Shown here: positions 40,969 through 63,272 of the stretch, piece by piece
How positions within the stretch are numbered: the stretch's first letter is position 1
Layout of the letters: each line of letters starts with the position of its first letter
Origin: a virus
Strand: one strand, 5' to 3'
IMG/VR virus record: IMGVR_UViG_3300045120_000483
Coordinates: 40,882 to 104,881 of that record
Length of the DNA stretch: 64,000 nucleotides
Translations under genes and position numbers: made by a program
The notes under the pieces: generated by a model
What the model was told of the DNA's origin: nothing
Database searches by the model: none
Seen by the model: only the letters and a program-made list of their open reading frames with translations

Positions 40969-41039
40969 CGCGGGGTAGAGGAGTAGTTCCTTGCCAGCCT
41001 CATAAGCTGGAGACATCGGTGCAAGTCCGGTCCACGCAA
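40969..41039 (+). tRNA. initiator-like tRNA-Met(CAT)
   Basis: CGCGGGG at the 5' end with an unpaired C1 opposite A72, the hallmark of bacterial tRNA-fMet; anticodon arm CCAGC-CTCATAA-GCTGG; T-arm ATCGG-TGCAAGT-CCGGT; A73 and encoded CCA. The three G-C pairs usual in the fMet anticodon stem are not all present, so initiator status is likely but not certain. Confidence 0.8.
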
Positions 41040-41047
41040 CCATTAAT

Positions 41048-41132: not shown

Positions 41133-41211
41133 TTTCTACTCAGGTTCGAATCCTGACGTTCAAGGACAGTCTATAGGCGAACGAACACTTGCGGAGATCG
41201 GTCAGTAGAAA
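41133..41211 (+). ncRNA. tRNA-like RNA, possibly circularly permuted
   Basis: Closed by TTTCTACT (41133-41140) with AGTAGAAA (41204-41211). A perfect T-arm TCAGG-TTCGAAT-CCTGA comes first, then CGTTC/GAACG as a putative acceptor, then a D-like arm with GG in its loop. Order is T-arm, acceptor, D-arm. No CCA and almost no variable loop. Confidence 0.4.
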
Positions 41212-41220
41212 TTCATTTAT

Positions 41221-41294: not shown

Positions 41295-41301
41295 CCATTA
41301 T

Positions 41302-41362
41302 GGAGGGGTACCGGCCGCCTCCGGATACGCTGGTCTCAAAGACCGTGAAAAGACCTCCACCA
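41302..41362 (+). ncRNA. two-armed tRNA-like RNA ending in CCA
   Basis: GGAGG (41302) pairs with CCTCC (41354), followed by A and CCA. Inside are only two hairpins (CCGG-CCGCCT-CCGG and GGTC-TCAAA-GACC) and no T-arm. A similar element with the same TTATGGAGGGGT start lies at 51672. The following ORF could in principle begin here, but its better ribosome site is at 41387. Confidence 0.4.
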
Positions 41363-43466: not shown

Positions 43467-43553
43467 TGTTCTTAATTGTGGAATACCTTGCTGTTCAAGG
43501 GCTTATGCAAGGGATAGACTTTGTAAGAAGGCGGTATTCCACAGTTAAGAACA
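43467..43553 (+). ncRNA. RNA with a 21-bp closing stem
   Basis: TGTTCTTAA-T-TGTGGAATACC (43467-43487) pairs over its full length with GGTATTCCACA-G-TTAAGAACA (43533-43553), with one T.G wobble. The head holds a CCTTGC/GCAAGG hairpin and a second stem. A possible RNase III substrate and processing signal for the adjoining tRNA-like RNA. Confidence 0.45.
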
Positions 43554-45825: not shown

Positions 45826-46052
45826 AGGTTGACGTGAAGGTGACTAGTGCGGGGAACGGCTCCCGGGCATATCCTAAAATTAGAAGGAGTATTGCCTACC
45901 AATACTTGGTTTGGTTCTCCACCCCTACAGTGGGGATAGTTGTATCCCAAGGTACGGGAACACAACTTCCCGGAAAATATTCAAATGATTGGGCCCCGGA
46001 GTGTTTTGAAGAGTGGACGGGAGAGGTCGTTTTAACGCTGACACAGGAGTAA
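45822..46052 (+). CDS. small beta-rich protein, 76 aa
   Basis: ATGA overlap with the HD gene and AAGGAG upstream. A beta-rich protein with no charged helices (YQYLVWFSTPTVGIVVSQ). It may be co-translated with the HD protein. Unknown function. Confidence 0.65.
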   Translation: MKVDVKVTSAGNGSRAYPKIRRSIAYQYLVWFSTPTVGIVVSQGTGTQLPGKYSNDWAPECFEEWTGEVVLTLTQE

Positions 46053-46307: not shown

Positions 46308-46317
46308 GCCGGATGGT

Positions 46318-46416
46318 GGACAGTGAGGATGCATTCCCTGAGTGGTCAAAAGGGCCGGTCTTTTAAACCGATGCGAAAGCTACGTGGGTTCGAATCCCCC
46401 TGCATCCTCACTGTCC
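46318..46416 (+). ncRNA. class II tRNA-like RNA with UUU loop and 16-bp acceptor stem
   Basis: Core 46327-46407: acceptor GGATGCA/TGCATCC, Ser/Leu-type D-arm, anticodon arm CGGT-CTTTTAA-ACCG (the exact loop of tRNA-Lys UUU), long variable arm with GCGAAAGC, T-loop TTCGAAT. GGACAGTGA before and TCACTGTCC after extend the acceptor to 16 perfect bp. No CCA is encoded. Confidence 0.55.
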
Positions 46417-47250
46417 ATTATCATATAATTTATAGAGGTCTTTGATTTTAAGACCGGTTTTGTTTTCTACATAACTGAAAACCTCCTGGAGGTCCGGTAG
46501 ATAAAGAATTTGGATGGGTTCTGTTACTCCTGAAAGTTTAAAGTCATCAACGGGAGATTTGAAGCCTTTGATTTCGATTAATTTTCCGTTTACCCGAAAG
46601 TCTGGGTAAAAGTTATGTTCTCTTTGAGTTATAGGATTGAAGTATAGATAAGGGGCCTTGTTTCTAGTAATGGAAATTTGGTGTTCTGTGCAAAAAATAT
46701 AGTAAGCTATTTCGTATGTGGAATTACAAAAAAATCCTTGATAGTATCCCTGTTTTCCTCTCCCCGCCCGGTGTCGAAAGCATCCAGGTTTTCCTTTTTT
46801 AGTTATGCTGATATTCTTCGCAGAAAGCGCCTTATTGCACTTAAGAGAACATGTCTTTAAACGTCGGTGTGTATATGGAAGAGGTACCTTGCATTCTTGA
46901 CATATTGAGGGAGATTGCAAATAAAGCTTTTTTGTGATTAAAGATTTTTGTTGTCCTGATATTCTAGAAATTTCCGAAAGACGTTTTTTAGTTTCTGATG
47001 AATGTTGCCACCCGCTTTCTTCTCTCTTTTTCATATTAGCTTTAGCTCCACAAGATTTAGAACAATACCGATATAAGCGACTTTTGTAGGAAATAGGATT
47101 CTGACAAAATTCACAGATTTTTGGGTTTAAAGCGTATTTTTGTTGACTACGCTCAGAAAGCCTGATACCATGGCAAGTAGGAGAACAAATTTTACTTCGC
47201 GGGTCTTGAGGGGTAAAAGGGGCTGAACAAACAAGACAAGAAATTGTCAT
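46408..47250 (-). CDS. zinc-finger/PD-(D/E)xK putative homing endonuclease, 280 aa
   Basis: N-terminal half holds several C-x2-C...C-x3-C units (CLVCSAPF, CSPTCHG, CEFCQNP, CSKSCGA, CQECKVP, CSLKCNK). The C-terminal half has FYPDFRVNGKLIEIKGF, a PD-(D/E)xK nuclease core (D..ExK). This arrangement fits homing or restriction-type nucleases. AT-rich and antisense within the tRNA array. Its final codons (46408-46416) form one arm of the extended stem of the tRNA-like RNA at 46318. Confidence 0.8.
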   Translation of the reverse strand: MTISCLVCSAPFTPQDPRSKICSPTCHGIRLSERSQQKYALNPKICEFCQNPISYKSRLYRYCSKSCGAKANMKKREESGWQHSSETKKRLSEISRISGQQKSLITKKLYLQSPSICQECKVPLPYTHRRLKTCSLKCNKALSAKNISITKKGKPGCFRHRAGRGKQGYYQGFFCNSTYEIAYYIFCTEHQISITRNKAPYLYFNPITQREHNFYPDFRVNGKLIEIKGFKSPVDDFKLSGVTEPIQILYLPDLQEVFSYVENKTGLKIKDLYKLYDNGQ

Positions 47251-47393: not shown

Positions 47394-47458
47394 TGCGGAG
47401 TTCCGATCTGGAAGTAACAAGAACTAATAGGATTTATCCTGATTAGTCCTCCGCACCA
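47394..47458 (+). ncRNA. two-armed tRNA-like RNA ending in CCA
   Basis: TGCGGAG (47394) pairs perfectly with CTCCGCA before CCA. Inside are only a D-like TTCC-GATCT-GGAA and a 10-bp hairpin (ACTAAT..AGGA-TTTA-TCCT..ATTAGT). No T-arm or anticodon loop. Confidence 0.4.
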
Positions 47459-47463
47459 AGTTT

Positions 47464-47536
47464 ACCCGTAGATGCTGCTAGTTGTGGCAGAATGATTGTC
47501 AATCATTTGAGTGGAGGGCAGAACTCCATACGGGTG
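47464..47536 (+). tRNA. tRNA-Asp(GTC) with variant T-loop
   Basis: Acceptor ACCCGTA/TACGGGT, anticodon arm AATGA-TTGTCAA-TCATT, T-stem TGGAG/CTCCA with loop GGCAGAA, G73 as expected for Asp, encoded CCA. D-loop without GG. Confidence 0.8.
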
Positions 47537-47544
47537 CCATTTAA

Positions 47545-47601
47545 GGGGTCGGGTATATTGGTACCAGATAAGATGCGGTAAAAGTCCGTCTCACCCCACC
47601 A
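47545..47601 (+). ncRNA. tRNA-like RNA without an anticodon arm, CCA end
   Basis: GGGGT..ACCCC acceptor, D-like hairpin GGTA-TATTGG-TACC, an 8-base linker, T-like hairpin GCGG-TAAAAGT-CCGT, A73 and CCA. 57 nt in all. Confidence 0.4.
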
Positions 47602-47606
47602 AGTCA

Positions 47607-47675
47607 GGAAGAAACATCGGTGCAAATCCGGTACAGATAACGGTTTCTGTTCGTCCAGTAGACTAGGACGCTTCC
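47607..47675 (+). ncRNA. circularly permuted tRNA-like gene 1
   Basis: Order along the strand: GGAAG (39-43 position), AAAC, T-arm ATCGG-TGCAAAT-CCGGT, 3' acceptor strand ACAGATA, ACGG, 5' acceptor strand TTTCTGT, TC, D-arm GTCC-AGTAGACTA-GGAC, G, CTTCC (27-31 position). CTTCC pairs with GGAAG, so all four stems form but the chain is opened at the anticodon loop. The T-arm is almost identical to that of the initiator-like tRNA. Confidence 0.6.
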
Positions 47676-47683
47676 GCTCCTAC

Positions 47684-47757
47684 CTGGGTATAGCTTTCCC
47701 CTAAGAGTGGTTTCTGGGGGTAAAGGGTGAGCGTCCCATAAAAAACGGAACCCACTA
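47684..47757 (+). ncRNA. structured RNA between the two permuted genes
   Basis: TGGGT/ACCCA closure, a long CTTTCCCC/GGGG..AAAG arm and GGG-TGAGCGT-CCC. Not assignable to a standard tRNA. Confidence 0.25.
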
Positions 47758-47765
47758 ATTTTGAG

Positions 47766-47846
47766 CTAGGGGGAGATACGGTTCGATTCCGATACTAGTC
47801 GCGCGTGAAAGCTAGTTGGACCTAATGGATATGGTCGCCCCCGTTA
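47766..47846 (+). ncRNA. circularly permuted tRNA-like gene 2
   Basis: Order: GGGGG (47769-47773), AGAT, T-arm with canonical loop TTCGATT, 3' acceptor strand ACTAGTC, 9-base linker, 5' acceptor strand AGCTAGT, TG, D-arm GACC-TAATGGATAT-GGTC with canonical GG, G, CCCCC, GTTA. CCCCC pairs with GGGGG. The next tRNA starts at 47847, so the 5' half ends with GTTA. No CCA. Confidence 0.65.
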
Positions 47847-51041: not shown

Positions 51042-51050
51042 CCAGTTTAT

Positions 51051-51134
51051 GGAAATGTCAACTAGCGGGGAGCTAGCACTGTTTGGAAAACAGTTGAGAC
51101 CGAAAGGTTGAGGGATCGTTTCCCTGAGTTTCCG
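51051..51134 (+). tRNA. tRNA-Ser(GGA) with variant T-loop
   Basis: Class II: acceptor GGAAATG/AGTTTCC, anticodon arm ACTGT-TTGGAAA-ACAGT, variable arm, T-loop ATCGTTT, G73, encoded CCA. Confidence 0.8.
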
Positions 51135-51146
51135 CCATTTTAAGTA

Positions 51147-53629: not shown

Positions 53630-53705
53630 ACCCTTGTATGCCGCCACACTTCTAATGTGGAGAAAGCTAACTGGAAACATGCGGGTTCGAATCCTGCCAA
53701 GGGTG
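53630..53705 (+). tRNA. tRNA-Arg(TCT) lacking a D-arm in the normal place
   Basis: Acceptor ACCCTTG/CAAGGGT, anticodon arm CCACA-CTTCTAA-TGTGG, T-arm GCGGG-TTCGAAT-CCTGC, G73, encoded CCA. Only 7 bases (TATGCCG) separate acceptor and anticodon arm, while 20 bases containing CTGG lie between anticodon arm and T-arm. Confidence 0.7.
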
Positions 53706-53712
53706 CCACTAA

Positions 53713-53785
53713 ACCCCAGTACCGGTCTTGTTTCCTAAACAAGATACCGTAAGGGACTATAGGGGTCCGACTCCCCTCTGGGGTT
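53713..53785 (+). tRNA. tRNA-Arg(CCT) lacking a D-arm in the normal place
   Basis: Acceptor ACCCCAG/CTGGGGT, anticodon arm CTTGT-TTCCTAA-ACAAG, T-arm AGGGG-TCCGACT-CCCCT, discriminator T, encoded CCA. Six to seven bases precede the anticodon arm and about 17 follow it, the same layout as the adjacent tRNA-Arg(TCT). Confidence 0.7.
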
Positions 53786-53812
53786 CCACTGTTAACAAAG
53801 GAAAGAGATTTT

Positions 53813-54333: not shown

Positions 54334-54416
54334 AGAAAGCTAACCAGATGGGTTCTGGACACGCCTGCTAAGCGTTGTGTCCCTGAGGGGGTGTGGGTCG
54401 GGACCACAGTTTTCTG
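54334..54416 (+). tRNA. tRNA-Ser(GCT) with variant T-loop
   Basis: Class II: acceptor AGAAAGC/GTTTTCT, anticodon loop CTGCTAA, variable arm, T-stem TGTGG/CCACA with loop GTCGGGA, G73, encoded CCA. Confidence 0.8.
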
Positions 54417-54436
54417 CCAACTTAAAGGATAGATAA

Positions 54437-58019: not shown

Positions 58020-58030
58020 TGATTGTTGCT

Positions 58031-58091
58031 AGATGAAATAGCTACTAGGTAGCAGGATACCCGGGGCGCGACCCCCCGGCATCTCCACCAA
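58031..58091 (+). ncRNA. tRNA-like RNA without an anticodon arm, CCA end
   Basis: AGATG/CATCT acceptor, D-arm-like TA-GCTAC-TAG-GTAGC, T-arm-like CCGGGG/CCCCGG, then A and CCA. 61 nt, same plan as the 47545 RNA. Confidence 0.4.
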
Positions 58092-58172
58092 GGGCTCACT
58101 AGGCTTCCTGTACAAGGTTCTGATCAAACCTCCAGGTAAGAGCTTCGAAATTAGACTACTAGTGAGCCTTTG
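58091..58172 (+). ncRNA. tRNA-like RNA with Ile(GAT)-type loop inside a 13-bp stem
   Basis: AAGGGCTCACTAG (58091-58103) pairs with CTAGTGAGCCTTT (58160-58172), one wobble. Inside is a perfect anticodon-type arm AGGTT-CTGATCA-AACCT. D- and T-arms are not recognisable. No CCA. Confidence 0.45.
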
Positions 58173-58370
58173 GGGGGGATGAGCAGGTTCGATCTTGTAC
58201 TGAAAAGGTTGTGGATAGCGACTCACTGGCCAAGTGGCCGTAAACTAACCGGCAACACTCTTGTAGCCGATAATGACAACTCTTTCGGTGAGCTTGCGCT
58301 TGCTGCCTAAGTTGGCATAATCTGGGGTCTGGAACCGTACCTTATTACCCAAACGGTTCACTTCCCTCTT
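58173..58370 (+). ncRNA. gene-free stretch with further stems
   Basis: GGCC-AAGT-GGCC, CTCAC/GTGAG and a CTTGTAC able to pair back to GTACAAG at 58111 are visible; a TTCGATC loop lies at about 58199. Probably the rest of the same RNA unit. Confidence 0.25.
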
Positions 58371-62231: not shown

Positions 62232-63272
62232 ATGAAGCAGTACATCGGTTTGGTCCGTGACAAGAGTATCTCTATGCGCGGACATGCTAAGAAGGCCTTG
62301 GAAGACTACAATTCCAACATCGATATCATTAAGCGAAACGCCGCAACATTTGATATTGATACCATAGTCTCTGTGGTTGATTGTGGGGGCCCGGGAGTCA
62401 AGGATGCCGTCATTAACTCAAGCGTCAATAGCCTGAAGGTATTGACAACATATGATACTCCGGGAGGTTCTACTCCACTCTATGATTCTATCGGGCGGGT
62501 TATTGATATTCTTAAATCTGTTCCCGATAAAGATGACAAAAATGTTTCTTTTCTGGTCATGGTCATTACAGATGGGGAAGAAAATGCTTCCATAAAGTGG
62601 AATAATTATAGCTTAGGGGGGGCCATCCAGGGTCTTCAGAACTCTGATCGTTGGACTTTTACGTTCAGAGTACCTAGGGGTTATGGCCAAAACATTGTTA
62701 ATAATTTGAATATTCCGATTGGTAATGTGGTTGAATGGGAACAGACGGAAAAGGGTTGGAGAGAAGCAACGACCGTTAATCAAGACTCTGTTGCAGCTTA
62801 TTATCATACCCGTTCTACCGGACAAACCGCCACCCGAAACTTCTTTACCAATATCGATACCGGTAAGATGAAGACGGATATCAAGAAGCTCCAGGATTTT
62901 TCGGACGAAATCAAGAGCTATACGGTAACAATCCGGGATGCCATTAAAAAGTCTGCAAAGGGGGTGGCTTGTATTGATATCCTTCCCTTTGTGGAGAAGA
63001 AGACTAAGAAGCCTTACGTTCAAGGAACGGCCTTTTATCAACTCCTGAAGAAGGAAGAGGTCCAGGTCGGAAAGCGGATTTTGATCCGAAATAAGAATGG
63101 TAAGGTTTTTGGAGGTACTCAGGCCAGAGACGTACTGGGTCTTCCCAAGAAGGAAAGTATCAAGCTGTTTCCCGGTTATCATGGGGATTATGATATATTT
63201 GTTCAGTCAACGTCTGTGAACAGATTACTTCCGGTCGGGACAGAATTGTTGTATTGGCCGACATCTGTCTAA
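62232..63272 (+). CDS. von Willebrand A-domain protein, 346 aa
   Basis: The metal-ion site is visible as DKSISM (about residues 10-15), a Thr/Ser-Pro-Leu-Tyr-Asp loop (GGSTPLYDSI, about 79-88) and ITDGEEN (about 115-121). vWA domains bind proteins through a metal ion. A C-terminal domain of about 150 aa has no recognised motif. Follows gp32 by 11 bp, so is co-expressed with it. Known in other large phages with unknown role. Confidence 0.78.
   Translation: MKQYIGLVRDKSISMRGHAKKALEDYNSNIDIIKRNAATFDIDTIVSVVDCGGPGVKDAVINSSVNSLKVLTTYDTPGGSTPLYDSIGRVIDILKSVPDKDDKNVSFLVMVITDGEENASIKWNNYSLGGAIQGLQNSDRWTFTFRVPRGYGQNIVNNLNIPIGNVVEWEQTEKGWREATTVNQDSVAAYYHTRSTGQTATRNFFTNIDTGKMKTDIKKLQDFSDEIKSYTVTIRDAIKKSAKGVACIDILPFVEKKTKKPYVQGTAFYQLLKKEEVQVGKRILIRNKNGKVFGGTQARDVLGLPKKESIKLFPGYHGDYDIFVQSTSVNRLLPVGTELLYWPTSV

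What the first reader, a model, noticed from the sequence alone, without database searches (positions are those of the whole stretch)
47607..47675. Second circularly permuted tRNA-like gene next to the first
GGAAG, AAAC, T-arm ATCGG-TGCAAAT-CCGGT, acceptor strand ACAGATA, only four linker bases (ACGG), acceptor strand TTTCTGT (6 of 7 pairs), D-arm GTCC-AGTAGACTA-GGAC, G, CTTCC. CTTCC pairs with GGAAG. The T-arm is nearly that of the initiator-like tRNA at 40969, so it may derive from it. The acceptor is capped by ACGG, so charging would need cleavage there. Two such genes 90 bp apart argue against chance.
Basis: partly seen in the sequence, partly recalled or inferred. Interest (0 to 1): 0.85.

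Follow-up and report, generated by a model that had tools for sequence, protein, structure and literature searches.

The report
Phage tRNA mimic with sealed acceptor
A phage RNA gene copies three arms of a tRNA in rotated order with the amino-acid end sealed shut; this is the layout of the tRNA-like part of bacterial Y RNAs, so it is more likely a tRNA look-alike than a scrambled working tRNA gene.

Summary
The structure is there as described. 47607-47675 folds alone into the stated four-way junction (-20 kcal/mol, z -2.0). A scan for tRNAs opened at the anticodon loop ranks it first in the 105-kb phage record (49.3) and the neighbouring 47769-47842 second (39.2). No shuffle reached 49.3 (1,253 of the record, 7,098 of the array). 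Its 3' half matches the phage's own initiator-like tRNA at 22 of 25 bases.

The reading "permuted tRNA gene" is only partly supported. The arm order, connector lengths and capped acceptor are those of the tRNA-like module of the bacterial Y RNA YrlA (Rfam RF02553). The same rotated module occurs in many other phages, with strong covariation, usually inside an outer stem; 8 of 10 records carrying it encode a Ro60-type protein (TROVE or DUF2828), against 2 of 15 controls.

The window's copy differs: no outer (Ro-binding) stem, and no Ro60 gene in its partial record. So I call it a YrlA-like tRNA mimic, not a proven Y RNA. No U33 or anticodon can be assembled at its open end, which argues against a decoding tRNA. 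No close relative was found, so its own pairs could not be tested by covariation.

The parts
47607..47675 (+). whole tRNA-like module in permuted order (the finding)
   Evidence: folds as a four-way junction; top of the record in the permuted-tRNA scan, 49.3
47607..47611 (+). anticodon-like stem, 3' strand (tRNA positions 39-43), GGAAG
   Evidence: pairs with 47671-47675
47612..47615 (+). 4-base connector AAAC (variable region; C48 present)
   Evidence: same length as in the YrlA consensus
47616..47632 (+). T-arm ATCGG-TGCAAAT-CCGGT (G53, U54, C56, R57, A58, C61 kept; U55 is G, as in the phage's own initiator-like tRNA)
   Evidence: 22 of 25 bases shared with tRNA-Met 40969-41042 over connector plus T-arm
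47633..47650 (+). acceptor hairpin ACAGATA-ACGG-TTTCTGT, capped: no free 3' end and no CCA
47651..47652 (+). TC connector (U8 kept)
   Evidence: two-base connector as in YrlA
47653..47669 (+). D-arm GTCC-AGTAGACTA-GGAC (G10, A14, R15, G18, A21 kept; G19 not)
   Evidence: 47645-47675 is 87% identical to a phage tRNA-Glu over 31 bases (E 0.2)
47671..47675 (+). anticodon-like stem, 5' strand (positions 27-31), CTTCC
   Evidence: pairs with 47607-47611
   Evidence: second in the record, 39.2; weaker, as its minimum-energy fold alone is not the cloverleaf
40969..41042 (+). initiator-like tRNA-Met, probable source of the module's 3' half
   Evidence: ARAGORN; alignment

Best explanation
47607-47675 encodes a tRNA mimic of the YrlA type. 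A strand of the anticodon-like stem, the T-arm, an acceptor hairpin sealed by a short loop, the D-arm and the other strand of the anticodon-like stem follow one another, so the RNA shows the elbow and acceptor arm of a tRNA but has no amino-acid-accepting end and no anticodon. Most likely it is transcribed with the tRNA array, folds without cutting or joining, and is bound by proteins that recognise the tRNA elbow (shown for YrlA: DusA and TruB modification; Y RNA tethering of Ro60/Rsr to PNPase). It would work either as the effector half of a Ro60-type particle or as a decoy for tRNA-attacking or tRNA-handling enzymes. Shown here: the sequence, fold, statistical excess, tRNA ancestry of the 3' half, and identity of layout with YrlA and with a covarying phage RNA family. 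Inferred: transcription, protein binding and function.
For: Layout: the Rfam YrlA consensus runs anticodon-like stem, 4-base connector, T-arm, capped acceptor hairpin, UA, D-arm with 9-base loop, stem; the finding has the same order and connector lengths. Family: scanning found like modules in G001, Sinorhizobium phage phiM12 (two) and at least 14 further IMG/VR elements, several hit by RF02553 below its cut-off (31-37 bits, E 2e-5 to 2e-3). On seven of them 96% of cells are paired, 14 of 18 pairs change on both sides, 0 of 500 shuffles as high, and slid controls collapse. Ro link: in G001 the module lies about 190 bases upstream of a DUF2828/DUF7788 gene; 8 of 10 module records encode TROVE or DUF2828 against 2 of 15 controls (one-sided Fisher about 0.0015, by hand). 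Nearly all those modules have flanks that pair with each other. Not a decoding tRNA: neither U33 nor an anticodon can be put together from CTTCC|GCTCC and AAGTCA|GGAAG.
Against: The finding has no flanking Ro-type stem: flank pairing z +1.3 for it and +0.3 for the second module, while all 20 comparison modules have negative z, -0.3 to -7.7. No TROVE, DUF2828 or DUF2828-like protein in the 105-kb record, though the record is partial. RF02553 does not hit it even at E 10, and a covariance model from seven phage modules does not list it. No relative with the same element was found.
Confidence: 0.6

Rival explanations
1. A true circularly permuted tRNA gene as in red algae and Thermofilum: the precursor's ends in the anticodon loop are joined, then the acceptor cap is cut out by RNase P and another nuclease, CCA is added and the tRNA is charged.
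For: Order of halves and most conserved tRNA positions fit; a phage with a permuted tmRNA-like gene at 58027-58310 may live in a host used to such maturation; T4-like phages often carry RNA ligases (general knowledge).
Against: No U33 and no evident anticodon at the break. The 34 permuted tRNA genes listed in the 2014 review are all from algae and one archaeon and depend on a BHB-cutting splicing endonuclease (PMC3978253). RtcB and PF09414 ligases not found in the record. The cap is only 4 bases. The same architecture elsewhere in phages goes with Ro60-type genes and outer stems.
Confidence: 0.12
2. Debris of tRNA array recombination: a head-to-tail joint of two tRNA copies (3' half of one, 5' half of another) that has lost its outer halves and is decaying or not transcribed as a functional RNA.
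For: The 3' half resembles the phage's Met tRNA and the 5' half resembles Gln/Glu-type tRNAs; the array is full of divergent and D-arm-less tRNAs; no conservation could be tested for lack of relatives.
Against: A chance chimera would not pair its acceptor (6 of 7) and anticodon (5 of 5) strands; these pairs join segments of different origin, so they look selected. Two such elements lie 93 bases apart, and no shuffle gave two.
Confidence: 0.2
3. Part of a full Y RNA whose Ro-binding stem uses unusual or more distant flanks, with the Ro60 gene in the missing part of the genome.
For: CTCACCC 47590-47596 can pair with GGGTGAG 47725-47731, and the second module has a 12-bp G-U-rich candidate (P 0.03); the record is a fragment; phiM12, also a phage of an alphaproteobacterium, carries DUF2828 beside such modules.
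Against: The first helix is no better than shuffled flanks (P 0.53) and uses the acceptor strand of a neighbouring CCA-ended element. No CAGCAA motif anywhere in the array.
Confidence: 0.08

Closest known systems
YrlA, the bacterial Y RNA with a tRNA-like domain (Rfam RF02553)
   Same: Order anticodon-like stem, connector, T-arm, capped acceptor hairpin, two-base connector, D-arm, stem; U8, A14, G18, A21, G53, U54, C56, A58 kept; lies in a phage tRNA array, where related modules also occur.
   Different: No Ro-binding outer stem found, no Ro60/Rsr gene in the available 105 kb, not hit by the Rfam model; divergent T-loop (UGCAAAU) and D-loop (no G19).
Phage YrlA-like modules beside TROVE or DUF2828 genes (phiM12, G001, several IMG/VR records)
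   Same: Rotated module with a 4-10 base acceptor cap, in or near tRNA arrays.
   Different: Those have flanks that pair with each other, several with a CAGCAA-type motif, and near-canonical T- and D-arms; the window's copy has neither.
Circularly permuted tRNA genes (Cyanidioschyzon merolae and other algae; Thermofilum pendens)
   Same: 3' half precedes 5' half.
   Different: Those yield a functional anticodon loop through BHB splicing and a charged tRNA; here no anticodon, no BHB evidence, no ligase found.
Permuted (two-piece) tmRNA (RF04321)
   Same: Rearranged tRNA-like RNA; one candidate is present in this very phage (58027-58310).
   Different: tmRNA keeps an open CCA end and an mRNA-like part; the finding has neither.

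Membership tests
YrlA-type Y RNA | tRNA-like module in the order stem, T-arm, capped acceptor, D-arm, stem | tested here: met
   against the consensus
YrlA-type Y RNA | conserved T-loop and D-loop positions that allow a tRNA-like elbow | tested here: met
   most semi-invariant positions kept; G19 and U55 not
YrlA-type Y RNA | stem formed by the RNA's 5' and 3' ends that binds Ro60/Rsr | tested here: not met
   flank pairing no better than shuffles (z +1.3, P 0.93), single-helix test P 0.53-0.96
YrlA-type Y RNA | Ro60/Rsr-type gene in the same genome | tested here: inconclusive
   none in 105 kb but the record is partial
YrlA-type Y RNA | match to Rfam model RF02553 | tested here: not met
   no match at E up to 10; true phage modules score only 31-37 bits against a cut-off of 69, so the model is weak for phages
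YrlA-type Y RNA | binding to Ro60/PNPase, dihydrouridine and pseudouridine in its loops | not testable with these tools
   needs experiment
circularly permuted tRNA gene | 3' half encoded before 5' half | tested here: met
circularly permuted tRNA gene | ends join to give a 7-base anticodon loop with U33 | tested here: not met
   read directly: CTTCC|GCTCC and AAGTCA|GGAAG give no U33 in any 7-base join
circularly permuted tRNA gene | BHB motif or other splicing/ligating machinery | tested here: inconclusive
   RtcB and PF09414 not found; BHB and other ligase families not searched
circularly permuted tRNA gene | mature, charged tRNA | not testable with these tools
   needs RNA from infected cells

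The most novel reading that the evidence does not exclude
The two adjacent modules are free-standing tRNA mimics without a Ro-binding stem: sealed, uncleavable tRNA look-alikes made by a phage to occupy tRNA-attacking or tRNA-modifying enzymes, a form of YrlA cut loose from Ro60. (A true phage permuted tRNA gene, matured by end joining, would be more novel still but I give it about 0.12.)
Probability: 0.3. Interest if true: 0.7.

Novelty: new variant of a known kind. Interest (0 to 1): 0.42.

Why it matters
If true, it shows a tRNA-mimic module used by phages both inside Ro60 particles and on its own, next to their tRNA arrays. That would tie Y RNAs to the contest over host tRNAs; a decoy role against an anticodon nuclease has been suggested for Salmonella YrlA (PMC7790460). 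It also warns that 'permuted tRNA genes' seen by eye in phage genomes are likely to be Y RNA modules, which standard tRNA finders miss or list as odd long tRNAs.

Tried and rejected
Degenerate ordinary tRNA (outer stem as acceptor, first hairpin as D-arm): rejected, since the outer stem is only 5 bp with no CCA, the first hairpin has a T-loop and not a D-loop, and the last hairpin has a 9-base loop unlike a T-loop. Two halves of neighbouring ordinary tRNAs read across a joint: real in tandem arrays (e.g. G001 45924-46005), but here no ordinary tRNA owns either half and the linker is not NCCA. Exact-sequence and protein searches for close relatives in INPHARED, IMG/VR and GTDB found none. A covariance model from seven phage modules (R1) is dominated by canonical T and D sequence and mostly finds joints of tandem tRNAs in the window, so its silence on the finding is a poor test. 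TROVE does not match the G001 protein at Pfam level although DUF2828 does. Candidate third module near 41134-41212 (orphan T-arm) lacks a convincing D-arm and was not pursued.

Full report
The window is part of a 104,881-base IMG/VR virus record (G000:C1:40882-104881) with T4-like replication genes, a DNA polymerase about 39% identical to cyanophage ones, and a large tRNA array at 40-56 kb with 26 genes found by ARAGORN. No near relative was found in INPHARED, IMG/VR or GTDB contigs, so the element's own conservation could not be tested.

Observation. I wrote a scan for tRNAs opened in the anticodon loop, scoring T, acceptor, D and anticodon pairing plus semi-invariant tRNA bases. None of 1,253 shuffles of the record (one strand each) and none of 7,098 shuffles of the array reached 49.3, and none of the latter gave two hits of 39.2 or more. 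With pairing alone and no sequence preference, the margin is small (48 against a shuffle maximum of 47 in six shuffles). The 3' half matches the phage's initiator-like tRNA at 22 of 25 bases (0 of 300 shuffled queries), the 5' half best matches Gln(UUG) (P 0.02), and a database search with the whole element returns a phage tRNA-Glu for 47645-47675 (E 0.2). So both halves are tRNA-derived and in rotated order.

What it is. The closest long relative by capsid protein, G001 (about 60% identical), has a canonical module of the same kind with a 4-base cap (L087:8150-8218, score 49.9). Rfam names it YrlA (RF02553; 31.2 bits, below the cut-off of 69; E 7e-4 in a 5.4-kb search, 2e-5 in a short one). 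The printed YrlA consensus has the finding's order and connector lengths. Just downstream of the G001 module is a gene with DUF2828 and DUF7788 domains and a vWA signal; a relative in Ochrobactrum phage OC is annotated as Ro sixty-related, and 682 INPHARED phages encode relatives. In Sinorhizobium phage phiM12 two modules lie upstream of the DUF2828 gene, each inside a 21-bp outer stem. A pattern scan of IMG/VR gave many more. Seven aligned modules show strong covariation. Of 10 records with modules, 2 encode DUF2828 and 6 encode TROVE; of 15 control records, 0 and 2. Ro60 homologues in jumbo phages (PMC7824862, PMC7765460) and YrlA in phages (PMC7765460, citing a review I could not read) are known in the literature.

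Where the finding differs. Its flanks do not pair with each other (z +1.3; single-helix P 0.53-0.96), whereas all 20 comparison modules have negative z, some only weakly. The conserved CAGCAA motif is absent from the array. No TROVE or DUF2828 gene is in the 105 kb, though the record is partial. RF02553 and my own model R1 do not list it. I therefore do not file it as a Y RNA; I call it a YrlA-like tRNA mimic.

Mechanism. In YrlA the tRNA-like domain resembles the D, T and acceptor arms, is modified by DusA and TruB, and the basal stem tethers Rsr while the effector domain binds PNPase (PMC8394870). A role of the tRNA-like domain as competitive inhibitor of an anticodon nuclease has been proposed (PMC7790460). 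For the finding, a sealed acceptor and a missing anticodon fit a mimic that is neither charged nor decoded. The alternative, a permuted tRNA gene as in algae and Thermofilum (PMC3978253), needs a usable anticodon loop, and none can be formed from the flanks. These functional steps are inferred; only sequence, fold, statistics and family resemblance are shown.

Noticed in passing
window 58027-58310: Candidate permuted tmRNA (RF04321, 48.1 bits, just above the cut-off of 47), unusual for a phage.
   Followed up: no
window 46312-46422: tRNA-Lys(UUU) has its acceptor stem extended by leader-trailer pairing to 22 bp.
   Followed up: no
window 43467-43553: A perfect 21-bp stem encloses 45 bases inside the tRNA array, the length of the outer stems of phiM12 Y RNA candidates but without the CAGCAA motif.
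   Followed up: partly
window 47395-47458, 47547-47603, 41301-41362: CCA-ended small RNAs with closed acceptor-type stems and no recognisable anticodon arm.
   Followed up: partly
window 47463-47540, about 51050-51138, 53630-53708, about 53714-53790, about 54340-54420: Divergent tRNAs missed by ARAGORN, read by hand as Asp(GUC), Ser(GGA), D-arm-less Arg(UCU) and Arg(CCU), Ser(GCU).
   Followed up: partly
window 41134-41212: Orphan T-arm CAGGTTCGAATCCTG inside an 8-bp outer stem; possible third permuted module with a poor D-arm.
   Followed up: partly
L222:7896-8138 (Cronobacter phage S13): 'tRNA-Ser' of 121 nt and 'tRNA-OTHER' of 113 nt next to the DUF2828 gene look like unpermuted tRNAs with a Y-RNA-type hairpin (AAACTgacaAGTTTGTATTCAGCA) in place of the anticodon, while L222:8185-8270 is the permuted form.
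   Followed up: partly
L087:5703-8410 (phage G001): A row of about eight repeats (variable stem, TTNCAGCAA, insert, stem, CTGTTG) just upstream of the Ro60-like gene: a cluster of Y RNA candidates, one holding the permuted tRNA-like module.
   Followed up: partly
window 62232-63272: 346-aa protein with a vWA-like start (RDKSISM) beside the gp32-like gene; no Pfam match over cut-off.
   Followed up: partly
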